DNA from: Oscillospiraceae bacterium
GTDB lineage: Bacteria > Bacillota > Clostridia > Oscillospirales > Ruminococcaceae
Direction: 5' to 3'
NCBI GenBank assembly: GCA_009777835.1
Contig: WRKZ01000006.1
Coordinates: 1-53,768, forward strand
Length of the DNA: 53,768 nt
Shown here: piece after piece, positions 30,301-31,420 of the stretch
Layout: each line of letters starts with the position of its first letter
Numbering within the stretch: position 1 is the stretch's first letter
Translations under genes and position numbers: made by a program
The notes under the pieces: model-generated
Database searches by the model: none
What the model saw: the letters and a program-made list of their open reading frames with translations, nothing else
Told to the model about the DNA's origin: nothing

Positions 30301-30358
30301 AAACTTTTATACTCCTATGCTATCTATTCTAACACAGAAATCTGAAAATGTCAAACGC

Positions 30359-30448: not shown

Positions 30449-31063
30449 ATGTTTTTCAGAAAAAGCCCCCCACAGGCGGGGGTCAAGTTTATAATCTGCG
30501 GACTCGGCAATCCCGGAATCCGCTACGAAAACACGCGGCACAATTGCGGATTCATGGTAATCGATGACCTAGCGAAAAAATATTTCGCCCCGGTCAAGAA
30601 ACTGCGGTTTAAATCGCTCACCGGGGAAGCGGTCATAAACGGGCAGAAGTGCCTTCTCATGAAGCCGTCTACTTTCATGAACAAAAGCGGTGAAGCCGTC
30701 GCCGAGGCTATGCGTTTTTACAAGTTGAACCCCGCGCAGGTCTTGATTATTTGCGATGACGTTAATTTCGAGGTCGGGGTCATACGGATTCGCGCAAGGG
30801 GTTCGGATGGTGGGCAAAACGGACTCAAGAATATAATCATGCTGGGTAATTCGGATGAGTTTCCGCGGGTGCGTGTAGGGGTCGGCGGAAAACCGCATCC
30901 CGATTATGACATGGCGAATTGGGTGCTTTCGGCATTTTTGAAGGCTGAAGCATCTGCGTTGGAGTTCGCGTTGGCTAACGCGGTCGGTGCGGCGGAAATG
31001 TTCACCGACGGCGATTTGAACGGCGCAATGAATCGGTTCAACGGGGTAAAACCATCAACTTGA
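30449..31063 (+). CDS. pth: Peptidyl-tRNA hydrolase
   Basis: 204 residues. GLGNPGIRYENTRHNCGF carries the catalytic His. KPSTFMNKSG, ICDDVNFEVGVIRIRARGSDGGQNGLKNI (catalytic Asp) and FPRVRVGVGGKP are all present. It recycles peptidyl-tRNA released from stalled ribosomes. GGAGGT precedes ATG 30449. Its stop codon overlaps the -35 box of the next small gene. Confidence 0.96.
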   Translation: MFFRKSPPQAGVKFIICGLGNPGIRYENTRHNCGFMVIDDLAKKYFAPVKKLRFKSLTGEAVINGQKCLLMKPSTFMNKSGEAVAEAMRFYKLNPAQVLIICDDVNFEVGVIRIRARGSDGGQNGLKNIIMLGNSDEFPRVRVGVGGKPHPDYDMANWVLSAFLKAEASALEFALANAVGAAEMFTDGDLNGAMNRFNGVKPST

Positions 31064-31088
31064 CAAGTATTGTCGAAAAATGTATAAT
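31060..31088 (+). promoter_or_regulatory. Consensus promoter of the small hydrophobic peptide gene
   Basis: Perfect TTGACA (31060-31065) and TATAAT (31083-31088) are 17 bases apart. The -35 overlaps the pth stop codon. GACAA-GTA-TTGTC at the -35 forms a short dyad. Confidence 0.9.
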
Positions 31089-31122
31089 TGTTGTATCGTC
31101 GGCTCTTCCGTCGGGAAGGGAG

Positions 31123-31132
31123 GTGAGGATAT
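31123..31132 (+). repeat. DRa copy 1 over ribosome-binding site and start codon
   Basis: GTGAGGATAT spans the ribosome-binding region and AT of the ATG. It recurs with one change (GTGAGGTTAT) at 31276-31285, inside the region transcribed as antisense RNA. Confidence 0.75.
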
Positions 31133-31226
31133 GCCATACATTGTCACATTCATACTTTCTGTTATGGCGAGCGTAGCTGGTTACTACGTAAGCAAGTGGT
31201 TAGACAGAAACGCATCCGATGATTAG
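31131..31226 (+). CDS. 31-residue hydrophobic peptide, candidate Fst-like type I toxin
   Basis: MPYIVTFILSVMASVAGYYV forms one predicted TM helix, followed by KWLDRNASDD. A single helix with a short charged tail containing [K/R]-x-L-D resembles the layout of Fst toxins, though their PxxxG motif is absent. GGGAGGTGAGG gives a very strong ribosome-binding site, and a small CUUCC/GGAAG hairpin sits just upstream. The gene has its own consensus promoter. A convergent promoter and terminator on the other strand make a short RNA able to pair with its initiation region. Toxicity is inferred, not shown. Confidence 0.75.
   Translation: MPYIVTFILSVMASVAGYYVSKWLDRNASDD
31144..31152 (+). repeat. DRb copy 1 in the early codons of the peptide gene
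   Basis: TCACATTCA, repeated exactly at 31294-31302 near the 5' end of the predicted antisense RNA. Confidence 0.75.
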
Positions 31227-31235
31227 CCCGAAAAA

Positions 31236-31269
31236 GAACCCCCGGAGAACTGGCATTCTCCGGGGGTTC
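31236..31269. terminator. Strong hairpin shared by peptide mRNA and antisense RNA
   Basis: A perfect 14-bp stem (31236-31249 with 31256-31269) has a 6-base loop. On the minus strand it is followed by TTTTTCG, a good terminator. On the plus strand CGCTTGTGTG follows, so it is weaker for the peptide mRNA. Confidence 0.85.
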
Positions 31270-31275
31270 GCTTGT

Positions 31276-31302
31276 GTGAGGTTATACACATCATCACATT
31301 CA
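31276..31302 (-). repeat. DRa copy 2 and DRb copy 2
   Basis: GTGAGGTTAT (31276-31285) and TCACATTCA (31294-31302) occur in the same order and orientation as DRa and DRb at 31123-31152. Confidence 0.75.
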
Positions 31303-31313
31303 ACTGTTCGTAC

Positions 31314-31342
31314 ATTATATCATTCAATCAGTAATTTGTCAA
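31314..31342 (-). promoter_or_regulatory. Consensus promoter of the antisense RNA
   Basis: On the minus strand TTGACA (31337-31342) and TATAAT (31314-31319) are 17 bases apart, matching consensus at all twelve positions. Confidence 0.9.
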
Positions 31343-31420
31343 GGGCTTTTTTCAAGATTATTTTGCGATTTAGTAAAATTGCACAAAAAACCGCCCGAAA
31401 CTTTGTGCAAAATGACACCC

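What the first reader, a model, noticed from the sequence alone, without database searches (positions are those of the whole stretch)
31060..31342. Compact convergent gene pair with type I toxin-antitoxin architecture
Seen: a 31-residue single-helix peptide gene with a perfect promoter and strong ribosome-binding site; a perfect promoter on the opposite strand 3' of it; a 14-bp hairpin with U-run ending the opposite transcript; and two direct repeats (DRa GTGAGG[A/T]TAT, DRb TCACATTCA) in the same order in the peptide's initiation region and in the antisense region. The predicted ~77-nt RNA can thus pair with the ribosome-binding site, start and codons 5-8 of the peptide mRNA, plus the mRNA tail. 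Known: this is how the Fst/RNA II (par) module of enterococcal pAD1 is built, with convergent genes, shared terminator and DRa/DRb. Inferred: a chromosomal type I module in Oscillospiraceae, with a peptide of the (K/R)-x-L-D tail type but lacking the Fst PxxxG motif. I know of no characterised example of this peptide family.
Basis: partly seen in the sequence, partly recalled or inferred. Interest (0 to 1): 0.87.

Follow-up and report, generated by a model that had tools for sequence, protein, structure and literature searches.

The report
Unannotated par-type toxin–antisense RNA gene pair
A tiny gene for a membrane peptide faces an antisense RNA gene that looks built to block its translation; it belongs to a widespread, largely unannotated branch of a known kind of bacterial toxin–antitoxin system.

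Summary
The window holds one copy of a widespread module. In 162 distinct usable relatives the ORF is followed by a hairpin and an opposing promoter (>=9/12 in 154 of 162; control windows 93 of 539). Each locus's antisense region repeats that locus's own initiation region: among 114 de-duplicated loci the cognate partner scores highest in 85 (chance about 1), although the repeats differ between loci. This co-variation is strong comparative evidence for antisense control of translation, the plan of par/Fst of pAD1. The peptide has the Fst/Ldr signature (Trp between helix and charged tail), the family profile finds LdrD (E=0.0084), and a bridging relative passes NCBI's Fst model. But the window peptide lacks P/D/S/TxxxG and hits neither the Pfam nor the NCBIfam Fst model. 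I call it a divergent KWLD-type clade of par-type type I toxin–antitoxin. It is an extra ~280–300 bp between pth and a GH94 gene. Toxicity and transcription are inferred. By-products: arrays with distinct repeats, and antitoxin copies without toxin.

The parts
31060..31088 (+). promoter of the peptide mRNA, TTGACA-17-TATAAT; its -35 overlaps the pth stop codon
   Evidence: 12/12 consensus; relatives >=9/12 in 132 of 162 against 51 of 537 control windows
31119..31124 (+). ribosome-binding site GGAGGT
   Evidence: sequence
31123..31132 (+). direct repeat DRa, copy in the initiation region
   Evidence: cognate coverage profile of the family
31131..31226 (+). toxin-like ORF, 31 aa, one hydrophobic stretch, KWLDR, charged tail
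   Evidence: hydropathy; relatives
31144..31152 (+). direct repeat DRb, copy in codons 5-8
31231..31307 (-). predicted antisense (antitoxin) RNA, about 77 nt
   Evidence: ends inferred from promoter and terminator; predicted length in relatives: median 79 nt over 82 loci
31236..31269 (-). terminator hairpin, 14-15 bp, U-run on the minus strand
   Evidence: relatives: median stem score 33.5 against 14.5 in control stretches
31276..31285 (+). direct repeat DRa', copy in the antisense gene
31294..31302 (+). direct repeat DRb', copy in the antisense gene
31314..31342 (-). promoter of the antisense RNA, TTGACA-17-TATAAT
   Evidence: 12/12; relatives >=9/12 in 154 of 162 against 93 of 539 control windows

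Best explanation
A par-type (Fst/RNA II-like) type I toxin-antitoxin module. The plus-strand mRNA encodes a 31-residue single-helix membrane peptide that would harm the cell when made freely (inferred). The minus-strand RNA of about 77 nt runs back over the terminator and over copies of the peptide's initiation region; it pairs with the mRNA at the terminator stem-loop and at DRa/DRb, covering the ribosome-binding site, start codon and codons 5-8, and so blocks translation (architecture and co-variation shown; pairing and repression inferred). If the locus is lost, the antisense RNA would vanish first and the peptide would be made, favouring retention of the locus (inferred from par of pAD1). 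The copy here is an insertion between pth and GH94 relative to three relatives.
For: All elements present. Family-wide co-occurrence of both promoters and hairpin. Locus-specific co-variation of the repeats over 114 de-duplicated loci: cognate mean 16.2 against non-cognate 7.9 (sd 1.7); cognate top-ranked in 85; two colinear exact blocks >=6 nt in 89 of 114 against 151 of 1133 non-cognate pairs. Shared 7-mers form a plateau from -8 to +7 and a peak at +8 to +19 around the start codon, non-cognate 0.10 or less. Within four arrays the cognate antisense region is the best partner in 13 of 14 rows. Same kind of cognate repeats in 14 loci found with NCBI's Fst model, some below its cut-off: 14.4 against 7.2. 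One contig carries both kinds, starts 478 bp apart. Copies on plasmids, some of 2.4-7 kb, and on phage or viral contigs. Peptide homology to Fst/Ldr: LdrD E=0.0084, hhalign P=0.0002, chain window-L036-L280 with L280 at 29.2 bits over NCBI's Fst cut-off of 26. Three relatives have pth-GH94 without the module.
Against: No toxicity or RNA data. PxxxG, reported essential in Fst of pAD1 (PMC7472228, passages read), is absent from all 111 distinct peptides of the set. Window peptide: no hit to Pfam or NCBIfam; L036 in the chain scores only 13.7 bits on the Fst model. hhalign probability is only 46.7%. Hiding of the RBS by the leader is seen on average (unpaired 0.16 against 0.25 with shuffled leader; 62 of 82) but not in the window copy (0.13 against 0.03, more exposed). 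The upstream helix of par is supported in some relatives (22 of 74 in the strongest 5%, about 4 expected) but not here (rank 0.52). 7 of 162 relatives score 9 or less for repeats: L040, L099, L119, L121, L158, L201, L215; in L215 my script misplaced the stop codon. 8 of 162 lack an opposing promoter of 9/12. In one array row a non-cognate partner scores higher.
Confidence: 0.85

Rival explanations
1. Same RNA control, but the peptide is a small membrane regulator (for example of a transporter) rather than a toxin; the antisense RNA tunes its dose.
For: Chromosomal copy beside a sugar-phosphorylase gene (GH94); the review notes a chromosomal par locus between sugar-transport operons and no deletion phenotype for any chromosomal system (PMC7472228, its section 5 read).
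Against: Copies on small plasmids, viral contigs and in arrays, and antitoxin remnants without toxin, fit an addictive element better; three GH94 orthologs live without the module. Neighbours of the other copies were not surveyed.
Confidence: 0.12
2. A par-like plan reached by convergence: the KWLD peptides are not homologous to Fst/Ldr.
For: Weak model scores; hhalign probability 46.7%; short membrane helices breed chance hits.
Against: Gap-free profile match to LdrD over 28 residues; bridging peptide L280 passes the Fst cut-off and is 46% identical to L036, which is 41% identical to the window peptide; both kinds side by side with the same RNA plan.
Confidence: 0.15
3. The short ORF and hairpin are a regulatory leader of the downstream GH94 gene, and the opposing promoter is incidental.
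For: Position just upstream of GH94.
Against: Three relatives have GH94 with a 130-150 nt intergenic stretch and no module; by eye that stretch resembles the window's stretch beyond the module. The opposing promoter and repeats go with the peptide elsewhere.
Confidence: 0.02
4. Chance co-occurrence of promoters, hairpin and repeats.
For: For this locus alone the repeat score is reached in 1.6% of shuffles.
Against: Family-wide tests.
Confidence: 0.01

Closest known systems
par of plasmid pAD1 (Fst / RNA I-RNA II), Enterococcus faecalis (PMC7472228, abstract, passages and two sections read)
   Same: convergent promoters, shared terminator region, DRa and DRb at the initiation site and in the antisense RNA, single-helix peptide of about the same length (33 and 31 aa)
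   Different: no PxxxG; KWLD instead; no hit to the Pfam Fst_toxin or NCBIfam Fst model; 5' structures not confirmed in this copy
Lpt module of Lactobacillus plasmids (PMC5608710, passages read)
   Same: 29-aa peptide, 74-nt antisense RNA, 24-nt complementarity over the start codon, repeats, convergent
   Different: Lpt has the PxxxG motif, whose proline is essential when expressed in E. coli (per PMC7472228)
Ldr toxins of enterobacteria (LdrD, PDB 5lbj)
   Same: W-L between helix and charged tail; gap-free profile match over 28 residues
   Different: ldr/rdl is said to be regulated more like hok/sok than like par (PMC7472228)
Clostridioides difficile type I toxins (NF047374; PMC7699646, passages read)
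   Same: small membrane peptides with convergent antisense RNA, on prophages
   Different: 13-25 bits against a cut-off of 60, limited to the helix; the paper describes a lysine-rich tail

Membership tests
par/Fst-type type I module (architecture) | convergent promoters | tested here: met
   both 12/12; opposing 154 and sense 132 of 162 relatives >=9/12
par/Fst-type type I module (architecture) | bidirectional intrinsic terminator | tested here: inconclusive
   hairpin with U-run for the antisense RNA; plus-strand tail poor in T here; in relatives >=4 T in 9 nt: antisense strand 128, sense strand 102 of 162
par/Fst-type type I module (architecture) | DRa/DRb repeats at initiation site and in antisense RNA, locus-specific | tested here: met
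par/Fst-type type I module (architecture) | 5' stem-loop hiding the RBS and 5' upstream helix | tested here: inconclusive
   average or partial support in relatives, not in the window copy
Fst/Ldr superfamily (peptide) | tryptophan between membrane helix and charged C-terminus (signature as given in PMC7472228) | tested here: met
   KWLDR; W in 106 of 111 distinct peptides; alignment with LdrD
Fst/Ldr superfamily (peptide) | [P/D/S/T]xxxG in the helix (said to hold for the majority, not all) | tested here: not met
   window has SVMAS; 25 of 111 relatives have the motif, none has PxxxG
NCBIfam NF033608 Fst subfamily / Pfam PF13955 | score over the curated cut-off | tested here: not met
   window peptide no hit at E<=10; of 34 relatives 3 match NF033608 at E<=1, best 0.0062, none PF13955; bridging L280 29.2 against cut-off 26
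type I toxin-antitoxin | free expression of the peptide stops growth; antisense RNA rescues | not testable with these tools
   needs experiment
type I toxin-antitoxin | antisense RNA is made | not testable with these tools
   no RNA data held
Clostridioides difficile type I toxins (NF047374) | score over the curated cut-off of 60 bits | tested here: not met
   13 of 34 match at E<=1; best single score seen 24.6 bits

The most novel reading that the evidence does not exclude
The KWLD modules form a large, so far unannotated branch of par-type addiction elements in which the repeats act as a fast-changing recognition code: genomes collect arrays of copies with mutually distinct codes, and keep toxin-less antitoxin copies that protect them against the matching module of a neighbour's plasmid or phage (anti-addiction). 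The clearest case is L091, which keeps the antitoxin part of a module whose intact form sits in a genome of the same genus (L092), with the toxin's start and promoter gone; most other orphans showed no clear foreign partner.
Probability: 0.3. Interest if true: 0.7.

Novelty: new variant of a known kind. Interest (0 to 1): 0.5.

Why it matters
It suggests that par-type antisense control is much commoner in gut Bacillota than annotation shows (no gene listed under the match in 20 of 20 plasmid hits shown, of 26; that gene table is incomplete), on peptides that lack the motif reported essential for Fst toxicity. It offers many natural pairs (162 examined here, 387 places confirmed) for working out what decides specificity between toxin mRNA and antisense RNA, and a natural series of intact, arrayed and disarmed modules for testing whether antitoxin remnants give immunity to addiction.

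Tried and rejected
Family libraries: Pfam, NCBIfam, PADLOC, PHROGs: for the KWLD peptides only sub-threshold or uncurated hits, PADLOC none; PHROG hits mostly of unknown function, a few holins. Rfam: only rRNA in the window. PF13955 in 149 genomes: none over the cut-off; seven of 14 control genomes rang below it, so noise. NF047374 in 148 genomes: none over the cut-off. NF033608 in 299 genomes of the phylum: 2 at E<=0.001, 1 over the cut-off. A duplex test of the 5' upstream helix with 28 nt was uninformative (cognate -11.5, non-cognate -9.7, mid-ORF control -10.7); with 15 nt it gave partial support. U-turn motif near the terminator loop: 26 of 107, not pursued. A second match in the own genome (C36, L219) is a 22-nt stretch over a promoter -10 region: not a module. 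No structure prediction was run: a 31-aa single helix would add little. Searches used a GH94 query shifted by one base: positions usable, identities void; redone. The intergenic lengths 130-150 nt were counted by hand from the sequences (the script's gaps run to a nearby codon, 124-153).

Rows dropped before counts: alignment A1 took 34 of the 38 peptides (L009, L011, L013, L036 left out); L098, L100, L101, L104 (weak) before one search's counts; two hits without a start codon (L003, L109) and six (L191, L194, L195, L199, L200, L202); duplicates (172 to 164); two with short flanks (164 to 162). Control windows lie 500-1100 nt away and in arrays can fall on a neighbouring module. Of 387 genome contigs relatives only the best 80 were returned. 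The orphan search looked only inside fetched loci around toxins, so it gives no rate; its 40 rows are not fully de-duplicated.

Full report
Observation. The sequence was read and scanned. Every listed element is there: two 12/12 promoters facing each other (31060-31088 plus; 31342-31314 minus), GGAGGT at 31119-31124, an ORF of 31 codons at 31131-31226, a 14-15 bp hairpin at 31236-31269 with TTTTTC on the minus strand, DRa (9 of 10 bases) and DRb (exact 9-mer). A longer in-frame start at 31080 lies at the -10 region, upstream of the predicted RNA start, and is unlikely to be used. For this one locus the repeats are suggestive (16 of 1000 shuffles reach the score); the family decides.

Relatives. 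The own genome has one copy, and its antitoxin region has no second full copy. 40 of 149 genomes, own included, match at E<=1 by single-sequence search; the weakest are probably chance. With a profile of 34 peptides 24 of 71 genomes of the genus (own included) match at E<=0.01, 18 of 291 of the class (own included; five of them weaker than 0.002) and 77 of 121 of one family outside the class but in the same phylum. In GTDB contigs 387 places were confirmed by tblastn and the best 80 returned, with names such as Roseburia, Blautia, Ruminococcus, Hungatella, Veillonella, Holdemanella and many Lachnospiraceae. Further: 27 viral contigs, 26 plasmid records (E<=10) and 8 phage records (E<=10, the weaker ones doubtful). 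Some plasmids are only 2.4 to 7 kb. None of the 20 plasmid rows shown had a gene listed under the match; that gene table is incomplete.

Architecture test. 162 distinct usable modules were measured by script. Opposing promoter >=9/12: 154 of 162 against 93 of 539 control windows from the same loci. Sense promoter >=9/12: 132 of 162 against 51 of 537. Hairpin score median 33.5 against 14.5. Local alignment of each initiation region to each antisense region: cognate mean 16.4, non-cognate 7.9 (sd 1.8); the cognate is top-ranked in 101 of 162. After removing near-duplicates (114 loci): cognate 16.2, non-cognate 7.9 (sd 1.7); the cognate is the single best partner in 85; score >=12 in 91% of cognate and 3.6% of non-cognate pairs; two colinear exact blocks of >=6 nt in 89 of 114 against 151 of 1133. 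Shared 7-mers form a plateau from -8 to +7 (0.33-0.43 of loci) and a peak from +8 to +19 (0.59-0.75) around the start codon; non-cognate pairs stay at 0.10 or less. As the repeats differ between loci but match within a locus, they are most simply kept equal by selection: the mark of an antisense RNA acting on its own mRNA. 7 of 162 score 9 or less (L040, L099, L119, L121, L158, L201, L215); in L215 my script misplaced the stop, the others were not examined further.

Arrays. Several genomes carry tandem copies about 300-450 bp apart. Within four arrays (14 measured modules) the cognate antisense region was the best partner in 13 rows.

Membership. A review (PMC7472228; abstract, passages and its sections 4 and 5 read) gives the superfamily signature as a tryptophan between helix and charged tail, with P/D/S/TxxxG in the majority, and lists the par hallmarks. 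The window peptide has the tryptophan (KWLDR) but SVMAS in place of SxxxG. Among 111 distinct relatives 106 have W, 25 have [PDST]xxxG, none PxxxG. A profile of the family finds LdrD (PDB 5lbj) gap-free over 28 residues, E=0.0084. hhalign with 12 peptides found with NCBI's Fst model (not all over its cut-off) gives P=0.0002 but probability 46.7%. A bridging peptide, L280, scores 29.2 bits on that model (cut-off 26) and is 46% identical to L036, which is 41% identical to the window peptide; L036 itself scores 13.7. On contig L314 a KWLD-type module and a canonical PxxxG Fst module start 478 bp apart. 14 loci found with NCBI's Fst model, some below its cut-off, have cognate repeats too (14.4 against 7.2). 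I therefore place the module with par in how it is built, and the peptide in the Fst/Ldr superfamily as a divergent clade; it is not a member of the Pfam or NCBIfam Fst models as drawn.

Weak points. The leader structures of par are only partly supported: in 82 relatives the RBS is on average more hidden than with a shuffled leader (62 of 82), but the window copy is not; the upstream helix is supported in 22 of 74 relatives at the 5% level (about 4 expected) and not in the window copy. Toxicity, membrane insertion, RNA production and pairing are inferred.

Place. Of 29 other pth loci fetched from the genus, three (L224, L226, L227) have a GH94 gene next to pth, 85-89% identical, after 130-150 nt and without a module; in the window the gap is 426 nt, and by eye the stretch beyond the module resembles the relatives' intergenic stretch (Pfam names). 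The module is thus an extra ~280-300 bp in a neighbourhood shared with those three.

Orphan antitoxins. Among 40 extra copies of antitoxin genes inside fetched loci (rows not fully de-duplicated) 12 have no toxin-like ORF upstream by script. Two were read: L076 (a 96% copy with a 12/12 promoter) and L091, where a module like L092 has lost the toxin's 5' part and promoter but kept the antitoxin part. L091's orphan fits the L092 initiation region (20) better than its own neighbour (12); for most others the best partner scored 10-14, little above background. In L314 an orphan shares its DRa with L278 of another genome.

Literature. Searches in the open library found the Fst/Ldr, Lpt and C. difficile work. 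The strings YYICKW and CKWLD occur in no biological paper held (one unrelated hit), and no paper held all four of type I toxin-antitoxin, Lachnospiraceae, antisense and plasmid. Kwong 2010, Weaver 2012 and Fozo 2010 were seen only as references; a genome survey cited in PMC6563280 (passages) lists Fst-like peptides in C. bolteae and C. asparagiforme, which may belong here and were not tested. So a part of this clade may be in print under the Fst name.

Verdict. Real, not chance, and very likely a working kind of element; a new variant of a known kind. The by-products, mutually distinct array members and antitoxin remnants, are the parts most worth a laboratory's time.

Noticed in passing
L076 1309-1426; L091 1850-1938; L314 from 1447; others: Antitoxin genes without a toxin: 12 of 40 extra copies found beside modules (rows not fully de-duplicated) have no toxin-like ORF upstream by script. 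In L091 a module like that of L092 has lost the toxin's 5' part and promoter but kept the antitoxin part; in L314 an orphan shares the initiation repeat of L278 in another genome.
   Followed up: partly
L314 and L321 559-2463: Tandem KWLD-type and canonical Fst modules are separated by repeated fragments of the 3' end of a flagellar hook gene (FlgE domains; repeats seen by eye), as if modules duplicate together with the end of flgE.
   Followed up: partly
31379-31411: Inverted repeat TTGCACAAA...TTTGTGCAA upstream of the GH94 gene, by eye also in L224 and L227 and degenerate in L226: a possible operator of the GH94 gene.
   Followed up: no
L003 1501-1581 and L054: In L003 the toxin ORF has lost its start while the antitoxin region is, by eye, nearly identical to that of the phage record MT835565 (L054).
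   Followed up: no
30326-30354: Near-consensus promoter (TTGACA-17-TAGAAT, 11/12, minus strand) upstream of an ORF that I take by eye for ribulose-phosphate epimerase, with roughly 80-120 nt of leader.
   Followed up: no
1-620: The window is a whole contig (C6) and opens with the 3' end of a 23S rRNA gene and a 5S rRNA gene.
   Followed up: no
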